This document shows, piece after piece, positions 81 through 47,296 of a stretch of DNA of 47,296 nucleotides. The translations under genes were made by a program, and so were the position numbers. This DNA is from a virus. The stretch spans positions 1 to 47,296 of IMG/VR virus record IMGVR_UViG_3300046507_000149; one strand, 5' to 3'. Position 1 is the first letter of the stretch; each line of letters starts with the position of its first letter. The notes beneath the pieces are model-generated. The model saw only the letters and a program-made list of their open reading frames with translations. It did not search any database and had not been told where the DNA came from.

Positions 81-127
81 TCCGGTTCGTTAGTCGATGG
101 ATAGATATTATCTTTTTACGAACCGGA
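81..127. repeat. 10-bp inverted repeat flanking a promoter
   Basis: TCCGGTTCGT (81-90) and ACGAACCGGA (118-127) are perfect inverted copies around the -10 element of the leftward promoter. The same decamer occurs again in the leader of the rightward gene at 2387, where it supplies the ribosome-binding GGAG. The element is repeated at 47250-47296. Confidence 0.75.
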
Positions 128-133
128 ATGCAA
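105..133 (-). promoter_or_regulatory. Leftward sigma-70-like promoter for the zinc-ribbon/terL unit
   Basis: On the minus strand TTGCAT (128-133) lies exactly 17 bases from TAATAT (105-110). The -10 is embedded in the recurrent palindrome GATAATATC. It faces the zinc-ribbon gene (start at 71, equal to 47240) and, beyond a terminator at 46840-46864, terL. The -35 box lies just outside the duplicated terminal block, so the promoter is only complete in the left copy or on the circle. Confidence 0.75.
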
Positions 134-141
134 GCGCTATT

Positions 142-363
142 TCACAACATCATGACGCGTGTCGGATACGTTCGGTCGAACCATTCGTTGAACACCCCGT
201 GATCTTCGCGACGTTGCGCGGCATGACCGGGCATCAGCGGGATATCGTTCGCCGCGCAGTGGTTGACGGCACGCTCATATGCGCGGTCTGCGTTCTCTGC
301 GACGATGACAAAGCCGAAGTTCTCGCCGCTGCGAGTCGTGACGCCGATGTTATACGTTTTCAT
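142..363 (-). CDS. Hypothetical protein, 73 aa
   Basis: No family recognised. The product starts MKTYNIGV and is a small mixed alpha/beta-looking protein. An in-frame TTG at 444 would add 27 residues but would overlap the preceding gene by 80 bases, so I prefer the ATG at 363, two bases from the stop of that gene. It is the last gene of the short leftward unit that starts at 526. No clear Shine-Dalgarno is seen, which fits coupling to the upstream stop codon. Confidence 0.65.
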   Translation of the reverse strand: MKTYNIGVTTRSGENFGFVIVAENADRAYERAVNHCAANDIPLMPGHAAQRREDHGVFNEWFDRTYPTRVMML

Positions 364-364
364 G

Positions 365-526
365 TCAGATACCACACTGCGCGGCGTCAACGTCCCACAA
401 ATCGGGCAATGCAGGTAAACCGTCAGTGAATCGAATACATTCAATCCACATCCAATCTTGAAATGCTTCGTGCATCAGGGCGTTATCGGCCTGCGCTTGA
501 TCGCGAATGAACAGTTGCGTTTCCAT
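365..526 (-). CDS. Hypothetical protein, 53 aa
   Basis: Starts METQLFIR, with a good GGGAG ribosome-binding site just upstream. A longer in-frame reading up to 682 would run through the promoter and has no supporting start. It is the first gene behind the promoter at 555-583 and ends two bases before the next start. The product is acidic and tryptophan-containing, with no recognisable domain. Confidence 0.7.
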   Translation of the reverse strand: METQLFIRDQAQADNALMHEAFQDWMWIECIRFTDGLPALPDLWDVDAAQCGI

Positions 527-554
527 GATTCGATCTCCCGTTGTTGATGGGAAG

Positions 555-583
555 ATATTATCTTTTCGCGCGGGCATCGTCAA
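555..583 (-). promoter_or_regulatory. Leftward sigma-70-like promoter
   Basis: TTGACG (578-583, minus strand) is 17 bases from TAATAT (555-560), inside the palindrome GATAATATC. The first start codon, at 526, is about 28 bases beyond it. The -10 overlaps the stop codon of the preceding gene, so this is an internal promoter in a densely packed cluster. Confidence 0.8.
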
Positions 584-776
584 GCGTTCTACGTTCACGG
601 TCGTAAATGATCGTAGCTTCACCGATGCTAACGCCGCGCTCCAGGCTGATGCGCTGATATTCGCACGATAGGTAAATGTCAACAGCTTTGATCGTCTGCC
701 CGGCTTCGAGCGCTTCGAACAACTGCGAGCCCGGCGCGGCGTACGTGTCTCGATAGCGGATTGATTTGCTGTTCAT
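558..776 (-). CDS. Hypothetical protein, 72 aa
   Basis: Starts MNSKSIRYRD at 776, overlapping the stop of the upstream gene in an ATGA junction. The in-frame extension to 926 lies wholly over that neighbour and is not supported. Basic C-terminus (DDARAKR). No family recognised. Part of the chain of translationally coupled small genes 1844 to 558. Confidence 0.7.
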   Translation of the reverse strand: MNSKSIRYRDTYAAPGSQLFEALEAGQTIKAVDIYLSCEYQRISLERGVSIGEATIIYDRERRTLDDARAKR

Positions 777-976
777 GCTTCGCTCACCGGGACTAGCGTC
801 ACTTCCCAAACGGGCGGCGAACTCCATCCACCGCGTACGTTCCTCTCGCCGTTGGACATGCAGAACATGCCAGTAACAAGGTACGCAACGCCGCATTCGG
901 TATAAACCGCGCCGCTTTTCATACACTCTGAAAACCGTCCGATCTTTGCGCTATCACGACATGTCAGATTGATCAT
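773..976 (-). CDS. Hypothetical protein, 67 aa
   Basis: Starts MINLTCRD at 976 in an ATGA overlap with the stop of the gene before it, and ends in an overlap with the next start. Several cysteines are present but there is no clear paired CxxC. An alternative start at 1003 would overlap the neighbour more deeply. Function unknown. Confidence 0.65.
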   Translation of the reverse strand: MINLTCRDSAKIGRFSECMKSGAVYTECGVAYLVTGMFCMSNGERNVRGGWSSPPVWEVTLVPVSEA

Positions 977-1170
977 TTCGGCAACCCATTGCGCAATCGC
1001 CATTCGGCGCGGGCTTCTGCTGCGACTGCCATATCTAATTTTGCCTTCGCCTTTTGCCATCGCTTACGCGCCGCGCTTGCCATTCGATCATGATACAAAA
1101 TTTCCTCCGTTTCACTGTACATAACATTTAGCGCGGCGCGCTTACGTTGCTCGTAGTTTTGGCGTTTCAT
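973..1170 (-). CDS. Hypothetical basic helical protein, 65 aa
   Basis: Starts MKRQNYEQRK, with a GAGGGAAGA ribosome-binding site inside the end of the preceding gene and an ATGA overlap with its stop. The product is strongly basic and likely almost all alpha-helical (many Lys, Arg, Ala, Glu), which could suit nucleic-acid or host-protein binding. No family recognised. Confidence 0.7.
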   Translation of the reverse strand: MKRQNYEQRKRAALNVMYSETEEILYHDRMASAARKRWQKAKAKLDMAVAAEARAEWRLRNGLPK

Positions 1171-1373
1171 TCTTCCCTCACTGATAAATATTCGTCGCAC
1201 AGCGTGTCGTACAGCATCTTAACCGTACCGGGTTGCCGTTCAGTCACGCACGCCGCGTAAAGCCTGTGCGTCGGCCCGAAGTCGAACGACAGGCCCGTTA
1301 CGTTCCCGATGCGAACATGCCCCGATGGGAAGATCGCGACGAAGTACGCGCCGTTGTTGAATAGCATCTTCAT
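1167..1373 (-). CDS. Hypothetical protein, 68 aa
   Basis: Starts MKMLFNNG at 1373 in an ATGA overlap with the upstream stop. The sequence GAYFVAIFPSG looks like a beta-hairpin. No known domain. Same coupled leftward cluster. Confidence 0.7.
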   Translation of the reverse strand: MKMLFNNGAYFVAIFPSGHVRIGNVTGLSFDFGPTHRLYAACVTERQPGTVKMLYDTLCDEYLSVREE

Positions 1374-1555
1374 TCCGTCACCTTGAACGGTACGCAAACG
1401 CCGACGATTCCATCAGGGCAAACATGCGTCAAAAACGACGGCATGCCGGTTAGCGGCGCATCGGCGGAAGGCGGCTTTACCGTAGTGATGCAATGCGTGT
1501 ACTCGTCGCCGCATCGAGCGCACTTGTACGAAACGTTGACCTGTGGTGCGTTCAT
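1370..1555 (-). CDS. Small zinc-ribbon-like protein, 61 aa
   Basis: Starts MNAPQVNVSY, with a strong GGAGG ribosome-binding site 6 bases upstream. The cysteine pattern CARC near residue 12, CIT around residue 22 and HVC around residue 44 suggests a single small zinc knuckle. No function can be assigned. Confidence 0.75.
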   Translation of the reverse strand: MNAPQVNVSYKCARCGDEYTHCITTVKPPSADAPLTGMPSFLTHVCPDGIVGVCVPFKVTE

Positions 1556-1556
1556 C

Positions 1557-1844
1557 TTAACCTCCTAGTGTCATCGCGTTTGACAAAGCAATTTCTAGAT
1601 CGGCAACTTCTTTACGCCGATATTCGAGTTGCCGCGTGAGGCGTTCAATCAGGTAATTATTCGCGGCTTCGAACGTCGGGAAATATTGCGAATACTCCGA
1701 TACCTTCGCATGCACGCGGTCAACCGTTTTCGACTTGCCGTACGTTATAGGAACTCGAATGGTTAGCTGCTTCGCGGTTTCCTTCACCACGTTCACGGCT
1801 TCAACCGTGTCACCGAACTTCCGCACTTCGTACCATGTTGCCAT
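1557..1844 (-). CDS. Hypothetical protein, 95 aa
   Basis: Starts MATWYEVRKF, with an AGGGGG ribosome-binding site. The first 60 residues look like a small beta-rich fold and the last 35 like a charged helix, possibly a coiled coil. It is the first gene of the leftward cluster 1844-558 and lies directly after the palindrome at 1871-1879. Function unknown. Confidence 0.75.
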   Translation of the reverse strand: MATWYEVRKFGDTVEAVNVVKETAKQLTIRVPITYGKSKTVDRVHAKVSEYSQYFPTFEAANNYLIERLTRQLEYRRKEVADLEIALSNAMTLGG

Positions 1845-1870
1845 CTTAACCCCCTAGTGTTTGACGAAAA

Positions 1871-1879
1871 GATAATATC
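1871..1879 (-). promoter_or_regulatory. GATAATATC palindrome upstream of the 1844 gene cluster
   Basis: The conserved 9-mer sits 26 bases before the start at 1844 and just downstream of a terminator. Unlike the better promoters, no good -35 hexamer lies 17 bases away on the minus strand (GTGGCG at 1895-1900, within the terminator stem). It may be a weak promoter or an operator only. Confidence 0.5.
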
Positions 1880-1887
1880 ACACGCAA

Positions 1888-1917
1888 AGAAAAACGCCAC
1901 GGGTTTAGCGTGGCGTT
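1888..1917 (-). terminator. Rho-independent terminator, leftward
   Basis: AACGCCAC (1893-1900) and GTGGCGTT (1910-1917) form a perfect 8-bp stem with a 9-base loop. On the minus strand it is followed by a T-rich run. It ends the transcript of the acidic-protein gene at 1940..2173. Confidence 0.85.
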
Positions 1918-1939
1918 CGGTCCTACGTACGACGTGCTG

Positions 1940-2173
1940 TTACGCAGTTGCACCCGTATCCGCACCATCCGAAGTGCCGTTTCCCGGCTCATCCGTGCCG
2001 CTCACGACGTTCGTCGGGCCATCTGTCGGCCCTTCTTCCGTCGCATCTTCGCTGCCGAACAGGTTTTCGACAGCTTCGAGCGCGTCATGCAACGCACCTT
2101 CGATGCCTTCAATGCCGCTTTCGATCAACAGTTCGACGCGGGCAATCAATGATTCTTTGGTTACGTCAGCCAT
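1940..2173 (-). CDS. Acidic low-complexity protein, 77 aa
   Basis: Starts MADVTKESL with an AAGGAG ribosome-binding site. Residues 1-40 form an amphipathic, leucine-rich helix. Residues 41-77 are Gly, Thr, Asp and Glu rich and probably disordered. Very acidic small phage proteins sometimes mimic DNA, but nothing here proves that. It is a single-gene unit, with its own terminator downstream and the multi-copy palindrome region upstream. Confidence 0.75.
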   Translation of the reverse strand: MADVTKESLIARVELLIESGIEGIEGALHDALEAVENLFGSEDATEEGPTDGPTNVVSGTDEPGNGTSDGADTGATA

Positions 2174-2233
2174 ACATACTCCTTTCAGGTTAGGTCAATC
2201 CGCACCATTTGGCGGGAATCGACAGCATATCAG

Positions 2234-2328
2234 GTAATATCTACATGTCAATCAGCATAAGATAATATCGAAATTACCGTGCGGAAACAAACACTTACAT
2301 TCTGTCCCTATTGCAAAAAGATAATATC
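2234..2328. promoter_or_regulatory. Divergent control region with three GATAATATC-type boxes
   Basis: Boxes lie at 2234-2241 (variant GTAATATC), 2261-2269 and 2320-2328 between the leftward gene at 2173 and the rightward gene at 2387. The middle box makes a rightward promoter, TCTACA (2240-2245), 17 bases, TAATAT (2263-2268). On the other strand it makes a leftward one, TTGTTT (2285-2290), 17 bases, TATTAT (2262-2267). The 2320 box has a weak -35 but closely resembles the promoter at 12739. Confidence 0.65.
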
Positions 2329-3215: not shown

Positions 3216-3443
3216 TTAGCCATGATCGTAGCACACCCCAAGTAGGTAGTCCGTGTTCACGTCGAAGAACTTCGCGAGTTCTATTATCTGCCAGAAGCCC
3301 GGATAGACACGCCCGGATTCCCACTGCGCTATGCTTGCCTGCGAACAGCGCAACGCCGCCGCCAGTTGAAACTGTTTAAGCCTGCGTTCGGTGCGCATGC
3401 GACGCAATCGAGCCCCGAAGCCAAGCGGACCGTTATCACTCAT
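3216..3443 (-). CDS. XRE/Cro-type helix-turn-helix regulator, 75 aa
   Basis: Starts MSDNGPLGFG at 3443, overlapping the preceding regulator by 8 bases. Residues 10-65 fit the HTH_3 (XRE) fold: LRRMR..RRLKQ, then the recognition helix CSQASIAQWESGR, then FFDVNTDYLLG. It is a DNA-binding domain only, the size of a Cro protein. Second of a tandem pair and last in its unit. With no integrase in the genome, a lysogeny switch is not implied; it may repress early phage or host promoters. Confidence 0.88.
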   Translation of the reverse strand: MSDNGPLGFGARLRRMRTERRLKQFQLAAALRCSQASIAQWESGRVYPGFWQIIELAKFFDVNTDYLLGVCYDHG

Positions 3444-3645: not shown

Positions 3646-3860
3646 CGTTTACCCCAATGCTTCCATGCTGATTGCGCCCACAATCCGCCGTACACGAAGC
3701 ATAGCGCGAACATGCCCCATTGCTGGCTTTGATATGTCGCGATCATCCACAGCGGTTGCACGCCTAGGCCAAAGAAGCATGCGTACCGTTGGCGCGTCGC
3801 GTGAAGGCTTAGATACGTTGCAGCGAGCGACATGAACGCTATGCACGCCTGAACTAGCAT
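3642..3860 (-). CDS. Small membrane protein, 72 aa
   Basis: Starts at ATG 3860 in a TGATG junction (a GTG at 3863 would add one residue). Two hydrophobic segments, about residues 1-20 and 28-60 (PLWMIATY, MFALCFVYGGLW), suggest two membrane spans. No family recognised. Coupled upstream to an unknown protein and downstream to the two regulators. An inner-membrane role such as exclusion is only a guess. Confidence 0.75.
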   Translation of the reverse strand: MLVQACIAFMSLAATYLSLHATRQRYACFFGLGVQPLWMIATYQSQQWGMFALCFVYGGLWAQSAWKHWGKR

Positions 3861-4189
3861 CACGCGTCCCCTAGCATGCGTACCGTGATGAACAGCACGT
3901 TGCGGTAATGCTCATCTGTCAGGCCGTCGCGCGGCCGCGCCAGTGCTGCTCCCGCTGCATCGAGTTCGTACGATTCGGTTGCGCGCTCGATGCGCAATGC
4001 CATATCGGAGACCATCAGGCCGTATAGCGTCGTACCGTGGTTGCGTCTGATGCCGTCGATCAACTCGCGGTACAGTGCAAAGCAGTTGAACCGACGACGA
4101 AGGCGCGTATCCGATTCTTCGAAGATAACGCCGTTCCACAGAAAGCCCGGTAGATGTTGGGCGGACACTTCGCGGGTTAGTTCTAGCAT
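3860..4189 (-). CDS. Hypothetical protein, 109 aa
   Basis: Starts MLELTREVSA, with AAGGAGA upstream; first gene of the leftward unit that ends with the XRE pair, 50 bases beyond the promoter at 4240-4267. Mostly helical, arginine-rich in the middle, with no recognised domain. Confidence 0.78.
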   Translation of the reverse strand: MLELTREVSAQHLPGFLWNGVIFEESDTRLRRRFNCFALYRELIDGIRRNHGTTLYGLMVSDMALRIERATESYELDAAGAALARPRDGLTDEHYRNVLFITVRMLGDA

Positions 4190-4239
4190 GATGGTCTCCT
4201 TAAAACATTAGGATACTGCGGAAAATGTTTGTAATTTAA

Positions 4240-4267
4240 ATAATATCTTTTCCACAGGGGAATGCAA
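4240..4267 (-). promoter_or_regulatory. Leftward promoter of the XRE-regulator unit
   Basis: TTGCAT (4262-4267, minus strand) is 16 bases from TATTAT (4240-4245), within the palindrome variant GATATTATT (4239-4247). The palindrome lies about 50 bases before the start codon at 4189. This intergenic stretch is much more AT-rich than its surroundings. Confidence 0.65.
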
Positions 4268-11664: not shown

Positions 11665-11822
11665 GGTGCGGGCGCGATGACGACGCGTGCAACCGGGTCC
11701 GCAAGCTGCGTGTTCATTTCATCGAAGCACGCCGACGCGAATTCGAATGCCGTATCGCGTGAATCGAACTCGAACAGTGAACGCAGACCGAATTTCGTCA
11801 CTACCTTTACATGGAATTTCAC
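11661..11822 (-). CDS. Hypothetical protein, 53 aa (GTG start)
   Basis: Begins with GTG at 11822, overlapping the upstream stop as GTGA, and ends TGA at 11661-11663, again overlapping the next GTG. The sequence (MKFHVKVVTKFG, SLFEFDSRDTAFEFASACF) reads like a compact beta-alpha unit. Two successive GTGA junctions make the reading convincing. Confidence 0.62.
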   Translation of the reverse strand: MKFHVKVVTKFGLRSLFEFDSRDTAFEFASACFDEMNTQLADPVARVVIAPAP

Positions 11823-12661
11823 GGGCGGTACTCCACGGTAACGGGCGTGATGCGCCAGTTGTTGCGAATGTGCGGTTCAACGTGGTTGAAGCCCCAACGA
11901 ACCACGGCGATAGCTTCGGCGCGCGACGGATAGCCGTAGCGCATCACGGTCTTACCGTCGAAGATCACATGCCACGGTCCGCCAGGCGGCTTACCCGCTG
12001 CACGGCGACGCTCGCGGGTAAGCCGCCGTGCGAGTTTGTGGATACGTGCTTTTGCCGCGCCGTCGAAGTCGAGAAAGCCCGGTGAAGCAGTTACCTGTGT
12101 ACCTTCGATCTTGAACCGCACGGGCTGATCGTTGACCGTAACGGTTCCCGATGCTTCGAACGGAAAATCGACGCCCTTCATTCCGCGTTCGTCGCCGTAC
12201 ACCAGCTTGTTGCGCGTCGCTACGTCCGCAGCAGTGAACCCGGCGCGATGTAAGAGCCCTGCCAAGCGAAGCGACTTATTCGTAACCGCATCGCCTTGCG
12301 CGATCATTTCCGCAGTGCGTTGGTCGGACCACGGCATGGGCTTCGGCTTGCCGCAGTATTGACATTGCGATTCGCCGTTTATGCCGTGCGGGCGATACGA
12401 ACAGGATGCGCCGGACGCTGCGCACTCGTCGGGGATAGCGGGCATCATGGCGGCGTCGCGCGGATTGTTGAACGCGGCATCTTGAGACACTTGCAGGCCA
12501 GATTCAAGCCGCGCTTTCATCGCGTTAAGCGCCGCTTCGTATCCGCCGACGTTGGCGACGAGTTCGTTACCGTGTTCCACGTCGTAGCGACGGCCGTTAG
12601 GTGTGATCTTGAAACCGTGCTGCGTTGCGAATTCCTTCGCGCGTTGGCTAGGCGTTGTCAT
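11819..12661 (-). CDS. Hypothetical protein with zinc-finger-like segment, 280 aa
   Basis: Starts MTTPSQRAKE at 12661 with AAGGGG upstream. Residues 1-55 (FATQHGFKITPNG, ELVANVGGYEAALNAM) look like a small DNA- or RNA-binding unit. Around residues 80-110 cysteines (CAASGASC, CQYC) suggest a zinc site. The segment from about 195 to 235 is very basic (RIHKLARRLTRERRR). No family recognised; nucleic-acid binding is inferred from composition only. It leads the leftward run 12661-10180 behind the promoter at 12739. Confidence 0.72.
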   Translation of the reverse strand: MTTPSQRAKEFATQHGFKITPNGRRYDVEHGNELVANVGGYEAALNAMKARLESGLQVSQDAAFNNPRDAAMMPAIPDECAASGASCSYRPHGINGESQCQYCGKPKPMPWSDQRTAEMIAQGDAVTNKSLRLAGLLHRAGFTAADVATRNKLVYGDERGMKGVDFPFEASGTVTVNDQPVRFKIEGTQVTASPGFLDFDGAAKARIHKLARRLTRERRRAAGKPPGGPWHVIFDGKTVMRYGYPSRAEAIAVVRWGFNHVEPHIRNNWRITPVTVEYRP

Positions 12662-12737: not shown

Positions 12738-12738
12738 G

Positions 12739-12767
12739 ATATTATCTTTTCGCAATACAGGGACGAA
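12739..12767 (-). promoter_or_regulatory. Leftward promoter of the 12661-10180 unit
   Basis: TAATAT (12739-12744, minus strand) inside GATAATATC, with a weak -35, TTCGTC (12762-12767), at 17 bases. Its surroundings match the box at 2320 closely: GTCCCT, ATTGC, AAAAGATAATATCGT and GCTA occur in the same order in both. The match beyond the core suggests a shared class of promoter. Confidence 0.6.
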
Positions 12768-12798: not shown

Positions 12799-13080
12799 TC
12801 AGGCGCGCAGTTCTTTCGGGATGCGCACGCCGGTAACGCCGAGTTCGAGCCCTTCCTTAACCAGCTTCTTATGCTTGGCGTCAACGGCGGCTTGCAGGAT
12901 CGCGGCGCGCAGCGTGGCGCGGCCTTTGAAGTACACGCCGACGCAACCGGGCGTTACCCCTGCTTCTTCTGCGACAGCCGTGCGCGTGGCGTCCTTGATG
13001 CTTGTACGTTTCGCGACTTTGAAGGCCGCATCTAGAATCAGTTTCTTCCGGGTTTCCGGTTCCATCCGTACGTGTGCCAT
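12799..13080 (-). CDS. Mini TetR-like DNA-binding protein, 93 aa
   Basis: Residues 10-60 match the TetR N-terminal helix-turn-helix: KLILDAAFKVA, then TAVAEEAGVTPGCVGVYF and GRATLRAAIL. TetR regulators are normally 190-220 residues, with a large ligand-binding half; here only the DNA-binding half and a short basic tail remain. It would be a ligand-independent dimeric binder of a palindrome. It starts at ATG 13080 behind GAGG and is the last gene before the terminator. It is a candidate reader of GATAWTATC. Confidence 0.75.
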   Translation of the reverse strand: MAHVRMEPETRKKLILDAAFKVAKRTSIKDATRTAVAEEAGVTPGCVGVYFKGRATLRAAILQAAVDAKHKKLVKEGLELGVTGVRIPKELRA

Positions 13081-13082
13081 CG

Positions 13083-13295
13083 TTATTCCTCATCAGTGGT
13101 ATTAGGTGTGGGCGATAATATCACCACTTCACACGGCACGCAACGCCAACCGCGTTCTTTCCACCATCCCCACGTATGGAAACGGTCGTCATCGCCACGC
13201 GTACCGACAACCGCGTATTGCGCCGCGCCCCGCGTGGACGACAGTGATTTAAAGTCAATCAGGCCGTTAGGCGCTATGAGAATGAATGTTTGCAT
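13083..13295 (-). CDS. Hypothetical protein, 70 aa
   Basis: Starts MQTFILIAPN at 13295 in a TGATG overlap with the nuclease gene. Tryptophan-rich core (FHTWGWWKERGWRC), beta-rich. The C-terminal coding region holds a GATAATATC box (13114-13122), 34 bases before the TetR-like start. No family recognised. Confidence 0.7.
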   Translation of the reverse strand: MQTFILIAPNGLIDFKSLSSTRGAAQYAVVGTRGDDDRFHTWGWWKERGWRCVPCEVVILSPTPNTTDEE

Positions 13296-16014: not shown

Positions 16015-16065
16015 TTGCGCAACCGTTCGTCAGTAGATATTATCTCAACCGTTGCACCCAACAAC
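16015..16065. promoter_or_regulatory. Divergent promoters sharing one palindromic -10 box
   Basis: Rightward: TTGCGC (16015-16020), 17 bases, TATTAT (16038-16043). Leftward: TTGTTG (16059-16064, minus strand), 16 bases, TAATAT (16037-16042). Both -10 hexamers lie in the single palindrome GATATTATC (16036-16044), so the two RNA polymerases would compete for the same site. It drives the helicase unit leftward and the replication operon rightward. Confidence 0.65.
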
Positions 16066-17016: not shown

Positions 17017-18138
17017 ATGTCGAACACGTCGCCGTACGCGCTTCGTTTCTCACAAGCCGCAAAATGGGTTCGCTGCACGGCCTATACGCGTATGGTGCGG
17101 GACGCGCCGGAACTTGGCGATGTTACCGTGCGTGAGGAAGGAACCGCGTTCCATTGGGCGGCGTTGATGGTGTGGTTAGGTCATACCGTCAACGTCGGAA
17201 CGATTGCGCCAAACAAGGTTGCGATTGATGACGATATGCTCGACGGCATCGACGCTTACTTGGATCGCATTCGCACATGGGGCGGCACGCCACGGCTTGA
17301 ATTTCCGGTTGCCGCGCCGCGTATTCATCCCATGTGCGGCGGGACGGTCGATGTTTGGTCGTTCGACGTGTACAAACAGGTGTTGCACGTAGGCGATGCG
17401 AAGTACGGTTATCGTGCGGTGAGCGCTTATGAGAACTGGCAACTTCTCTGCGGCGCGTCCGGCTTGCTCGATCACCTGGGCGTTGTTGATGATCGACACA
17501 TAACGGTTGAAATGAGCATCTTCCAACCGCGTCTGTATCGCAGCGGCGGCCCTTGGGATAAGTGGACGGTTAGGGCGTCTGACTTGCGCGCGTATTTCAA
17601 TACGTTGCGTAACGCCGCAGAGCAGGCAATGTCGGACCGTACCATGTGTCAAACCGGGCCTTGGTGTAACGATTGTGCCGGTCGGCTTAACTGCGATGCG
17701 TTCCACGAAGCTGTAGAAAACGCGTTGGACGTTGCAAGTGAGCCCATCGACAACGACGTTACGGCGCAGCGTACGAACGACGAACTGTTACGCGTTGAGC
17801 GCGCACTGGATATTCTCGATGCCCGACGTTCGGCACTCGAAGCGCGCGCCGAAATGTTCATGCGTGACGGTAAGCAGTTGCGGCATTACAACCTTGAATC
17901 GGGGCGTTCACGCCTGCATTGGAAGGAGGGTATGGTAGATGCCCTAAAAGGTTTGGCGGTAACGAAGCAGATTCCGTTGTTCACTGAAAAGCCGATCACG
18001 CCGACTCAGGCGAAGAAGGTTTTAGAGCCCGCATTGGTTGACGCATTGAGCGAACGCCATACGGGAAAACTTAAAGTAGTTCGCGTGTCGCATGAACGCG
18101 CCGCGCGTGTTTTCGGAGATATCAGCAATGGCGACTAA
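17017..18138 (+). CDS. Cas4/AddB-like PD-(D/E)XK nuclease (DUF2800), 373 aa
   Basis: Probable single-strand exonuclease of recombination. The nuclease core has GGTVDVWSF (Asp), then HVGDAKYGY (D-x-K) and a following helix ENWQLLCG. One N-terminal cysteine (C20, KWVRCTAY) and a C-terminal cluster, C-x5-C-x2-C-x5-C (about residues 210-225), are placed as in the iron-sulphur ring of Cas4 and AddB. Starts three bases after the previous stop and overlaps the SSB gene by 11 bases. Family assignment is by pattern; the biochemical role is inferred. Confidence 0.85.
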   Translation: MSNTSPYALRFSQAAKWVRCTAYTRMVRDAPELGDVTVREEGTAFHWAALMVWLGHTVNVGTIAPNKVAIDDDMLDGIDAYLDRIRTWGGTPRLEFPVAAPRIHPMCGGTVDVWSFDVYKQVLHVGDAKYGYRAVSAYENWQLLCGASGLLDHLGVVDDRHITVEMSIFQPRLYRSGGPWDKWTVRASDLRAYFNTLRNAAEQAMSDRTMCQTGPWCNDCAGRLNCDAFHEAVENALDVASEPIDNDVTAQRTNDELLRVERALDILDARRSALEARAEMFMRDGKQLRHYNLESGRSRLHWKEGMVDALKGLAVTKQIPLFTEKPITPTQAKKVLEPALVDALSERHTGKLKVVRVSHERAARVFGDISNGD

Positions 18139-19216
18139 CAATCCAGGCGTGGAATTCCTTACCCCTGTTGGCCGACTCGTACAAGGTAGCGTGTGGCTTC
18201 TCAACGAAACGGACCGTGAAGGTAAGCCACTCGTTACGCAAGACGGCAAGCCGAAGAAGCAATGCTATTTCGCGCTCGCAATCGACAAGCAAAACCCCGA
18301 ATGGGGTGCGTTTTTCGCGAAGCTGGCGCAAGTCGCACAGGCGGGTTATCCGCAGTTTTTCAACCCGCAAGGCCAGTGCGTGAAGCCCGATTTTGCGTGG
18401 AAGGTCGCGGACGGCGACGGCATCGACGCGGACGGCAAGCCGAACAACGCTAAACCCGGATGGGCGGGATGTTGGGTTGTGCGGTTCTCGTCGTCGTTCC
18501 TGCCGCGTTGCTTCGAGAAAGGCAAGTACGCGCCGACGCAGCAATTGCAGGATGAGCGCGCGATCAAAACGGGCTTCTTCGTGCGTGTCGGCGGCCTCAT
18601 GTCTGCGAACATCGGTTCGAAGAAACCGGGCCTGTATCTGAACGCCGATCTTGTCGAACTTAACTTCGTCGGTGAAGAAATTCTTCCGGCAAACATTCGC
18701 GATGCGTCGGCGGCGTTGGGTGCGCAGCAATCGACGTACGTCCCGCAAGGTGCAATGCCGGTCGGTTCGCCGGGCGCAGCGATGGGCGGTATGGGCGGCG
18801 CAGCGATGGGCGGTATGGGCGGCGCAGCGATGGGCGGTATGGGCGGCGCAGCGATGGGCGGTATGTCGGCTAACGTCGGTTCGCCCGGCGCAGCGATGGG
18901 CGGTATGGGCGGCGCAGCGATGGGCGGTATGGGCGGCGTACAGCCGGGTATGGCGGCGCAACCGGGCTCGATGGTTCAGCCTAACCAAGGTTTCGTTGCG
19001 GGCGCAATGCAAGCGGCGGGCGTCGGCGGCGCAGCGATGGGCGGGTTTCCGCAACCGGGCGGCATGGGCGGCTTTCCGCAACCGGGCGGCGCAGCACAGC
19101 AACCGCAATATCAAATGACGCCGAAGGCGGGCGCTTACACGTTCGATCAATTCTTGCAAAACGGCTTCAGCGTCGAGCAAATCCTTAGCGACGGTTACGC
19201 CGTACGCGTGGCGTAA
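18128..19216 (+). CDS. DUF2815-type single-stranded-DNA-binding protein with Gly-Met repeat tail, 362 aa
   Basis: Starts MATNNPGVEF at 18128 behind GGAG; the upstream in-frame ATG at 18092 lies inside the nuclease gene. Residues 1-200 resemble phage DUF2815 proteins, OB-fold ssDNA binders (GRLVQGSVWLLNE, GCWVVRFSSSF, VGGLMSANIG). Residues 215-275 are an eight-residue Gly-Gly-Ala-Ala-Met repeat, then Gln/Pro-rich repeats. The last 25 residues (YTFDQFLQNGFSVEQIL) look like a conserved contact peptide, analogous to the acidic tip of bacterial SSB. The tail is much longer than I would expect for this family. Confidence 0.8.
   Translation: MATNNPGVEFLTPVGRLVQGSVWLLNETDREGKPLVTQDGKPKKQCYFALAIDKQNPEWGAFFAKLAQVAQAGYPQFFNPQGQCVKPDFAWKVADGDGIDADGKPNNAKPGWAGCWVVRFSSSFLPRCFEKGKYAPTQQLQDERAIKTGFFVRVGGLMSANIGSKKPGLYLNADLVELNFVGEEILPANIRDASAALGAQQSTYVPQGAMPVGSPGAAMGGMGGAAMGGMGGAAMGGMGGAAMGGMSANVGSPGAAMGGMGGAAMGGMGGVQPGMAAQPGSMVQPNQGFVAGAMQAAGVGGAAMGGFPQPGGMGGFPQPGGAAQQPQYQMTPKAGAYTFDQFLQNGFSVEQILSDGYAVRVA
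18772..18937 (+). repeat. 24-bp tandem repeat array inside the SSB gene
   Basis: The unit GGCGCAGCGATGGGCGGTATG plus three bases is repeated almost perfectly, four times in 18772-18865 and twice more in 18883-18937, coding for Gly-Gly-Ala-Ala-Met-Gly-Gly-Met. Exact DNA identity between units suggests recent expansion by slippage. A long open frame on the opposite strand is a by-product. Confidence 0.85.
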
Positions 19217-44819: not shown

Positions 44820-45134
44820 TTATTCTCCATATCCTGGGTTCGTGCTGAAGCGCGACGACGGCAAATACTCTGCGCCGCCCTTGCCGTCCGTAAGCATGAT
44901 GCGTCGATGCGTGGCGAACGTCCAGCACCCTGTGCGGATCGTGCGGCCTTCCGGCGTTTCCATGTGCCACCAGTAGAAACCGGAGAACGGGCACGGTTGC
45001 ATGCTCAACGCCAGAATCGCGCCGTCAGCCTTGCGCGCGAACGCGATATCGTTTGACTGAACTTGCGCTTGTGCGCATGAGTGCATGCCGAGTAACGCGC
45101 CGCATGCGATTGCCGCCGACAGAATAAATTTCAT
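44820..45134 (-). CDS. Secreted/periplasmic protein, 104 aa
   Basis: Starts MKFILSAAIA with AGGGG. A Sec signal peptide of about 24 residues ends in AQAQ, a fair signal-peptidase I site. The mature part of about 80 residues has cysteines (CPF, GCW) that could form a disulphide, and Trp/Tyr-rich strands. It has its own promoter, so it may be a separately expressed accessory gene (for example periplasmic exclusion). That role is speculation. Confidence 0.78.
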   Translation of the reverse strand: MKFILSAAIACGALLGMHSCAQAQVQSNDIAFARKADGAILALSMQPCPFSGFYWWHMETPEGRTIRTGCWTFATHRRIMLTDGKGGAEYLPSSRFSTNPGYGE

Positions 45135-45166
45135 CGCGAACCCCTTCGTTTGTTGGTAACGAAAAG

Positions 45167-46883: not shown

Positions 46884-47240
46884 TTATGCGAAAATTTCCG
46901 CGCGCTTTTCGTCGGCTTTAGCACGTTCGATAGCGCAAGATTCTTTAAATGCTTTGCCGACAAGTCCAGCTTTCATTGCGCGAGTCTTTGCCACTTCGTA
47001 TTGCAGCGCTTCGACCGTCGCGTTGTAAATCTTTTCCTTACGTGCCTTTTCGGCGGCGTCGCGGTCTGCTGCTTCCTTCGTCGCCTGCGCTGCTGTGCGC
47101 CCGGTCCACTTTGTTACGCACGTTGAACCGTAATGCAGAACTTCGCCGTCAACATCAACAGCAAACGTGAACTTAATATTCGTTTTACCGCAACAATCGC
47201 AAGTATTAACTGCGTCATCCGTGCCGAGAATCTTTTGCAT
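46884..47240 (-). CDS. Zinc-ribbon protein with basic helical tail, 118 aa
   Basis: Starts MQKILGTDDA at 47240 behind CCGGAG. CDCC (residues 14-17) and a later Cys in HYGSTCVTKW form a treble-clef-like zinc site, found in many small phage and plasmid proteins. From residue 50 on it is a long charged helix. Single-gene unit with its own promoter and terminator. This is the complete copy of the gene cut at the left edge of the window. Function unknown. Confidence 0.8.
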   Translation of the reverse strand: MQKILGTDDAVNTCDCCGKTNIKFTFAVDVDGEVLHYGSTCVTKWTGRTAAQATKEAADRDAAEKARKEKIYNATVEALQYEVAKTRAMKAGLVGKAFKESCAIERAKADEKRAEIFA

Positions 47241-47296
47241 TTCGTTTGCTCCGGTTCGTTAGTCGATGGATAGATATTATCTTTTTACGAACCGGA
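47170..47296. repeat. Terminal direct repeat, right copy
   Basis: Identical to 1..127. It holds the start of the zinc-ribbon gene, its leader, the GATATTATC box (47273-47281) and the 10-bp inverted repeat. The -35 box of the promoter lies beyond it, so only the left copy has a complete promoter. Confidence 0.93.

What the first reader, a model, noticed from the sequence alone, without database searches (positions are those of the whole stretch)
105..2328. A genome-wide near-palindrome, GATAWTATC, coincides with the -10 box of phage promoters
Intergenic copies or one-base variants lie at 104, 554, 1871, 2234, 2261, 2320, 4239, 5898, 12738, 16036, 21597 and 45166. At 104, 554, 2261, 16036 and 45166 the TAATAT or TATTAT core is exactly 17 bases from a TTG-type or similar -35 (16 at 4239). 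Sigma-70 does not require the outer GA and TC, so their conservation suggests an overlapping operator that one regulator reads at all units.
Basis: partly seen in the sequence, partly recalled or inferred. Interest (0 to 1): 0.75.

Follow-up and report, generated by a model that had tools for sequence, protein, structure and literature searches.

The report
Dispersed phage operator overlapping core promoters
A 9-letter palindrome, GATAnTATC, sits inside about ten promoters of this Burkholderia-type phage and of three relatives, and is best explained as the landing site of a small phage-made TetR-like repressor that controls all of them, including its own gene.

Summary
The motif is real. Exact GATAWTATC occurs 15 times against 0.23 expected (14 distinct, because the record's ends overlap by 127 bp). 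In the window and BcepB1A it is concentrated in non-coding DNA (8 of 14 sites in 6.6% of the window; 8 of 9 in BcepB1A). It is kept at orthologous promoters in three other phages about 70% identical in DNA. A TTG lies exactly 17 bp before the TAWTAT core at 14 of 68 oriented sites, against 4 of 580 in unrelated viral DNA. At a second set of sites the motif is instead in the spacer just after the -35, so it is not simply a -10 box. The only recognised DNA-binding regulator shared by all four phages is a 93-aa TetR-like protein (12799-13080). Its own promoter carries the motif in all four phages, in rare codons. The XRE genes are not shared. Two distant phages with homologues of this protein (KsaM-C1, Scuro) have their own dispersed palindrome over the -35, also in front of the TetR-like gene. 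Best reading: a promoter-overlapping operator regulon of a mini-TetR in apparently virulent phages. It works like P1 C1 or L5 dispersed operators but is not homologous to them. Binding and repression are inferred, not shown.

The parts
104..112 (-). operator/-10, class I: TTGCAT(133-128)-17-TAATAT(110-105), about 35 nt before the start codon of the gene that runs off the record's left end
   Evidence: same as 47273-47281 through the 127-bp end overlap
554..562 (-). operator/-10, class I: TTGACG(583-578)-17-TAATAT, upstream of gene 365-526
1871..1879 (-). operator after a terminator hairpin, upstream of gene 1557-1844; no clear -35 (like B28203 and F5627)
2233..2241 (-). one-mismatch copy GATATTACC in the spacer of TTGACA(2251-2246)-16-TATGCT, toward gene 1940-2173
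2261..2269 (+). operator in the divergent region; class I in both directions (TCTACA-17 on +, TTGTTT-17 on -); orthologous to BcepB1A 26422
2320..2328 (+). operator, class II: TTGCAA(2311-2316)-3-motif-5-TACATT(2334-2339), upstream of gene 2387; orthologous to BcepB1A 26472
4239..4247 (-). one-mismatch copy GATATTATT, TTGCAT-16-TATTAT, upstream of gene 3860-4189
12738..12746 (-). operator, class II: TTGCGA-3-motif-4-TAACAT, upstream of gene 11819-12661; orthologous to B36856 and C2070
12799..13080 (-). 93-aa TetR-like regulator, helix-turn-helix only, no ligand domain; proposed reader of the motif
   Evidence: Pfam TetR_N, orthologues in all four phages, fold like LuxR bound to DNA
13114..13122 (-). 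operator/-10 of the TetR-like gene, class I: TTGCGT-17-TATTAT, inside the 3' end of gene 13083-13295; kept in four of four phages
16036..16044 (.). operator between the divergent replication operons (helicase on -, 16088 on +): TTGCGC-17-TATTAT on +; orthologous to B41085 and C5404
21597..21605 (+). operator between DNA polymerase and gene 21619; orthologous to B46400 and C10734
45166..45174 (-). operator/-10, class I: TTGACA(45195-45190)-17-TAATAT, upstream of gene 44820-45134; orthologous to B23197
2387..2965 (+). 192-aa conserved protein of unknown fold with two upstream motif copies; alternative reader or target gene

Best explanation
GATAnTATC is the operator of one phage-encoded, dyad-symmetric repressor, most likely the 93-aa TetR-like protein at 12799-13080. 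Copies are built into about ten host sigma-70-type promoters of early and accessory genes. In class I the operator is the -10 region (TTG...-17-TAWTAT); in class II it fills the spacer directly after the -35. A bound dimer would block RNA polymerase at either place. The protein's own promoter carries a copy, so it should limit itself. These phages show no integrase and BcepB1A is described as virulent, so the circuit most likely tunes or shuts off early transcription during lytic growth, as Cro does, rather than maintaining lysogeny. Shown here: the motif, its register to the -35, its conservation, its presence upstream of the regulator gene, and the predicted fold of the regulator. Inferred: binding, repression and timing.
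For: Strong enrichment, concentrated in non-coding DNA. Orthologous placement in BcepB1A (G002), G001 and G003+G004 at about 70% DNA identity. TTG at exactly 17 bp: 14/68 oriented sites against 4/580 in unrelated viral loci, Fisher p 1e-11, or 5e-9 after merging orthologues. Class II geometry: 6/68 against 9/578, p 0.003. Outer G 29/29 and outer C 28/29, while the centre base varies A/T/C. The TetR-like gene is the only recognised HTH gene found in all four phages. The motif lies in its promoter in 4/4, once as GATAGTATC (half-sites kept, centre changed), using Ile ATA and Leu TTA/CTA codons that are rare in these genomes. Unbiased test: of all palindromes in the 100 nt before the TetR-like gene, GATAnTATC is the most over-represented genome-wide in W, B and E and (as AGATAnTATCT) in C; in KsaM-C1 it is TGAC-n6-GTCA (14 against 1.1) and in Scuro TGACA-n4-TGTCA (5 against 0.02), both overlapping the -35. 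AlphaFold model pLDDT 86; its first 65 residues or so match LuxR bound to DNA at 1.1 A. No tyrosine integrase; BcepB1A virulent (PMC3517404).
Against: No binding or transcription data exist here. Three other phages with distant TetR-like homologues (PD0307, SppYZU01, VP16T) show no dispersed palindrome before that gene. In E (G003) only one further exact copy was found, a coding one, and its divergent promoter has only a degenerate version. Several sites (1871, B28203, F5627) have no recognisable -35. The motif is only 9 bp, short for a TetR dimer. Gene 2387, with two upstream copies, is a possible alternative reader.
Confidence: 0.66

Rival explanations
1. It is only a conserved sigma-70 -10 box: this phage group happens to favour TAATAT/TATTAT promoters and nothing else reads the motif.
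For: TTG exactly 17 bp upstream at many sites; the outer G can act as the -14 G of an extended -10.
Against: The outer C at -6 is kept 28/29 though sigma-70 does not need it. The core is never the consensus TATAAT. Class II sites have the motif in the spacer with a separate TANNNT -10. Other sigma-70-like candidates without the motif are present in the same genomes.
Confidence: 0.1
2. The motif is read by the product of gene 2387-2965 (conserved, divergently placed, two motif copies upstream), not by the TetR-like protein.
For: Two copies before the gene in both W and B; the gene is conserved in W, B and F.
Against: No DNA-binding domain by Pfam or fold search, low-confidence model. Its homologue in Karil-Mokiny-1, 61% identical, lives with no copy in the 37 kb read.
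Confidence: 0.12
3. A phage-specific positive factor (alternative sigma or activator) recognises the motif as a promoter element and switches these genes on.
For: Nearly invariant 9 bp; A-rich asymmetric flank on the -35 side; some sites lack a usable -35.
Against: Many sites have a good host -35 at the optimal spacing. The motif occurs at two different registers to the -35, which an alternative sigma would not tolerate. Spacers are 16-17 bp, not the long spacers of MerR-type activation. No sigma-like gene was recognised among the proteins scanned (not all were).
Confidence: 0.08
4. The XRE proteins at 3216 and 3436 read the motif.
For: XRE proteins often bind palindromes over phage promoters; both are in the early region.
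Against: No orthologue of either in BcepB1A (best 25% identity, E 0.001) and no HTH_3 match in G001, G003 or G004, although the motif is shared.
Confidence: 0.03

Closest known systems
Phage P1 C1 repressor and its dispersed operators
   Same: One phage repressor with many copies of one short operator spread over the genome and overlapping promoters, including its own control region (22 operators, PMC8546580).
   Different: The P1 operator is a 17-bp asymmetric sequence and C1 maintains lysogeny; here the site is a 9-bp palindrome, the candidate reader is TetR-like, and no integrase is present.
Mycobacteriophage L5-type immunity repressor with operators and stoperators
   Same: Many identical sites across the genome, read by one phage protein (PMC9283540).
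   Different: L5 sites are asymmetric 13-mers read by a monomer, oriented with transcription and partly stopping elongation; here the conserved sites are palindromic and lie inside promoters, and the coding copies are mostly not conserved.
TetR-family repressors such as TetR, LuxR/HapR/SmcR, EilR
   Same: Same helix-turn-helix fold (LuxR-DNA, 1.1 A over 65 residues); palindromic operators over promoters; autoregulation.
   Different: The phage protein is 93 aa and has no ligand-binding domain; its operator is short and present many times in one small genome.
Cro-type lytic repressors and anti-CRISPR-associated (Aca) HTH repressors of phages
   Same: Small phage HTH proteins that damp early promoters, including their own (from general knowledge; Aca: PMC9410906 abstract).
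   Different: Act at one or a few sites; different HTH families; not dispersed over about ten transcription units.

Membership tests
TetR family of transcription regulators | N-terminal TetR helix-turn-helix domain | tested here: met
   Pfam TetR_N above cut-off in all four phages; listed top PDB fold matches are TetR-family regulators
TetR family of transcription regulators | C-terminal ligand-binding and dimerisation domain | tested here: not met
   93-98 aa; only short helices follow the HTH domain. A TetR-like HTH protein, not a full-length TetR repressor
TetR family of transcription regulators | Binds a palindromic operator as a dimer | not testable with these tools
   Palindrome present in its own promoter in 4/4 phages; binding needs experiment
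Phage repressors with genome-dispersed operators (P1 C1, L5 type) | Many copies of one operator across the genome, over promoters | tested here: met
   14 distinct exact copies, about ten in promoters, conserved in relatives
Phage repressors with genome-dispersed operators (P1 C1, L5 type) | Maintains lysogeny in a temperate phage | tested here: not met
   No tyrosine integrase match in five records, no prophage relative found, BcepB1A described as virulent (PMC3517404); other routes to lysogeny were not tested
Stoperators (L5 type) | Conserved asymmetric sites outside promoters that stop elongation | tested here: not met
   Palindromic; the four non-promoter coding copies are broken in orthologues, apart from 30196 kept in E only
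Sigma-70 promoters | -35 TTGACA-like and -10 TATAAT-like hexamers 16-18 bp apart | tested here: met
   Met at class I and class II sites, not at 1871, B28203, F5627

The most novel reading that the evidence does not exclude
A family of ligand-domain-less mini-TetR proteins in the replication module of virulent phages runs genome-wide regulons through short palindromes built into core promoter elements. Each phage lineage has re-invented both the palindrome and its place: GATAnTATC at the -10 or spacer in the BcepB1A group, TTGACGnnnnCGTCA over the -35 in KsaM-C1, TTGACAnnnnTGTCA over the -35 in Scuro. The regulator's recognition helix differs in step.
Probability: 0.5. Interest if true: 0.72.

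Novelty: new variant of a known kind. Interest (0 to 1): 0.6.

Why it matters
Dispersed-operator networks are best known from temperate phages, where they hold lysogeny. Here an apparently virulent phage group carries one, with a named and very small candidate regulator and exact operator coordinates, so the idea can be tested at once. The parallel palindromes in KsaM-C1 and Scuro would let one watch a regulator and its operators change together, and would give phage annotators a way to find the promoters of such phages from sequence.

Tried and rejected
XRE proteins as readers: not conserved. Coding copies 13604, 14859, 27032, 30196 as functional sites: motif broken in orthologues; 30196 is kept only in E. 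KsaM-C1 GGTAnTACC as a related operator: all copies coding. Other viral contigs with paired GATAWTATC (120 stretches): used as control, TTG at 17 bp in only 4 of 580 oriented sites, so they are mostly chance. Phages sharing the polymerase or terminase but without the TetR-like gene (Psp6, Magia) have no copy. Prophage relatives in genome contigs: helicase query found none, TetR-like query gave only generic cellular TetR proteins. Plasmids: no match. Fold of the 2387 protein: low confidence, no match. Rfam: nothing. No paper found on a phage TetR-like operator network.
Full report
What the window is. The record is a 47,296-bp IMG/VR virus whose first and last 127 bp are identical, so it looks like a complete, circularly assembled genome and site 47273 is the same as 104. 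It is a relative of Burkholderia phage BcepB1A. The BcepB1A identity of locus L002/G002 is inferred from its length of 47,399 bp, which I recall as that of BcepB1A; I did not find a named record. DNA polymerase is 76% identical, and most structural and replication genes are collinear at about 70% DNA identity. Two further relatives were found: G001 (18.8 kb) and a fourth phage split over G003 (25.8 kb) and G004 (8.3 kb), whose ends overlap by 82 bp. Below: W = window, B = G002, C = G001, E/F = G003/G004.

Is the motif real? Exact GATAWTATC occurs 15 times (14 distinct) against 0.23 expected from shuffles. It is the most over-represented 9-mer of the genome, and several intergenic copies extend to AAAAGATAATATC. 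With my own gene calls (a simple codon-usage predictor, not curated), non-coding DNA holds 8 copies in 3.1 kb against 0.018 expected (W), 8 in 3.7 kb against 0.025 (B) and 3 in 1.5 kb against 0.009 (C). In B only one of nine copies is coding, and that one is the orthologue of W13114. In W five copies are coding against 0.47 expected after shuffling synonymous codons. W13114 is discussed below; the other four are broken in the orthologous genes of B, C and E, except that 30196 is kept in E. I treat them as chance or lineage-specific. W554 straddles the predicted stop of gene 558-776.

Conservation. At 45166/B23197, 2261/B26422, 2320/B26472, 12738/B36856/C2070, 13114/B37239/C2456/E5162, 16036/B41085/C5404 and 21597/B46400/C10734 the motif is kept between phages whose surrounding DNA is only about 70% identical. 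Among 29 promoter-placed sites the half-sites are GATA 29/29 and TAT 29/29 plus C 28/29; the centre is A, T or once C (C2456 reads GATAGTATC on the + strand). Kept half-sites with a free centre are what a dyad-symmetric protein would select for. The set was partly chosen for matching the motif, so these counts describe it and do not by themselves prove constraint; the orthologous placement does.

Register to the promoter. TTG lies exactly 17 bp before TAWTAT at 14 of 68 oriented sites; no other spacing from 13 to 21 exceeds 4. In 580 oriented sites from unrelated viral loci the 17-bp count is 4. Fisher p is 1e-11, or 5e-9 when orthologues are merged. The best case, TTGACA-17-TAATAT, is the same in W45166 and B23197. 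Call this class I. Other sites have no -35 there, but have TTGNNN only 3-4 nt before the motif and TANNNT 4-5 nt after it: W2320, W12738, B36856, B46400, F1938, and the one-mismatch copy W2233. This class II arrangement occurs at 6 of 68 oriented sites against 9 of 578 controls (p 0.003). It is a weaker result: I noticed it before testing it, TANNNT is common, and the sites are not all independent. If it holds, the motif cannot be just a -10 box, since it occupies two positions relative to the -35. A few sites (1871, B28203, F5627) follow a terminator and have no clear -35; I do not explain them.

Which protein reads it? The XRE genes have no orthologue in B or in the C and E/F records. The TetR-like gene carries the motif about 28-35 nt before its start in all four phages as part of TTGCRW-17-TAWTAT (once TACTAT). 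The site lies in the 3' end of the preceding ORF, where in W, B and C it uses Ile ATA (4-14% of Ile codons) and Leu TTA or CTA (3-9%), so the DNA, not only the protein, appears constrained. The AlphaFold model (pLDDT 86) is a TetR helix-turn-helix with two short extra helices and no ligand domain; it superposes on DNA-bound LuxR at 1.1 A.

Independent check in distant relatives. Five named phages encode homologues (32-40% identical) in the same replication module. For every phage I listed all perfect palindromes in the 100 nt before this gene and counted them genome-wide. In W, B, C and E this returns GATAnTATC (14, 10, 4 and 2 copies; weak in E). In KsaM-C1 it returns TGAC-n6-GTCA (14 against 1.1 expected), in practice TTGACGnnnnCGTCA, with ten copies in non-coding DNA; about half have a TANNNT 17-18 bp downstream, so here the palindrome covers the -35. 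In Scuro it returns TGACA-n4-TGTCA (5 against 0.02). Only 9-15% of genes in each genome have the palindrome upstream, and the TetR-like gene is among them each time. PD0307, SppYZU01 and VP16T gave nothing. The recognition-helix region (GLVGVY in the BcepB1A group) differs in the phages with other palindromes. This is correlation, not binding.

How it probably works. A repressor bound at the -10 or in the spacer would exclude RNA polymerase. The promoters served are those of early and accessory units, the two divergent replication operons and the regulator itself; I saw none directly before the structural operon. With no tyrosine integrase found, no prophage relative found and BcepB1A described as virulent (PMC3517404), early shut-off or tuning is more likely than lysogeny. 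I did not test for other routes to lysogeny.

Place among known systems. It works like the dispersed operators of P1 C1 (22 sites, PMC8546580) and of L5-type repressors (PMC9283540), but it is palindromic, promoter-bound and tied to a different protein family, so it is filed as a new variant of a known kind. I found no paper on such a network, within an open-access library only.

Noticed in passing
1-127 and 47170-47296: The two ends of the record are identical over 127 bp, so the genome is assembled as a circle and one motif copy is counted twice.
   Followed up: yes
L130 (KsaM-C1), e.g. 11429, 13968, 14025, 18230, 20997, 30078, 33621: Dispersed palindrome TTGACGnnnnCGTCA, 14 copies of TGAC-n6-GTCA against 1.1 expected, covering the -35 of promoters, also before that phage's TetR-like gene.
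   Followed up: partly
L131 (Scuro) 21960, 22970, 26266, 28351, 33394: TGACAnnnnTGTCA, 5 copies against 0.02 expected, four of them just upstream of genes.
   Followed up: partly
L135 (Karil-Mokiny-1), e.g. 20634, 26814, 30047: Another AT-rich odd palindrome, GAAATnATTTC, 9 copies against 0.14 expected, at some sites close to start codons.
   Followed up: partly
18764-19090: Tandem 24-bp repeats (GGCGCAGCGATGGGCGGTATGGGC) in gene 18128-19216, giving an Ala/Met/Gly-rich tail region.
   Followed up: no
1871-1925, and G002 28203, G004 1938 and 5627: Terminator hairpins directly followed by the motif and a start codon; at 1871, 28203 and 5627 there is no clear -35.
   Followed up: partly
2387-2965: Conserved 192-aa protein, also in the jumbo phage BcepSauron and in Karil-Mokiny-1, with no known domain or fold.
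   Followed up: partly
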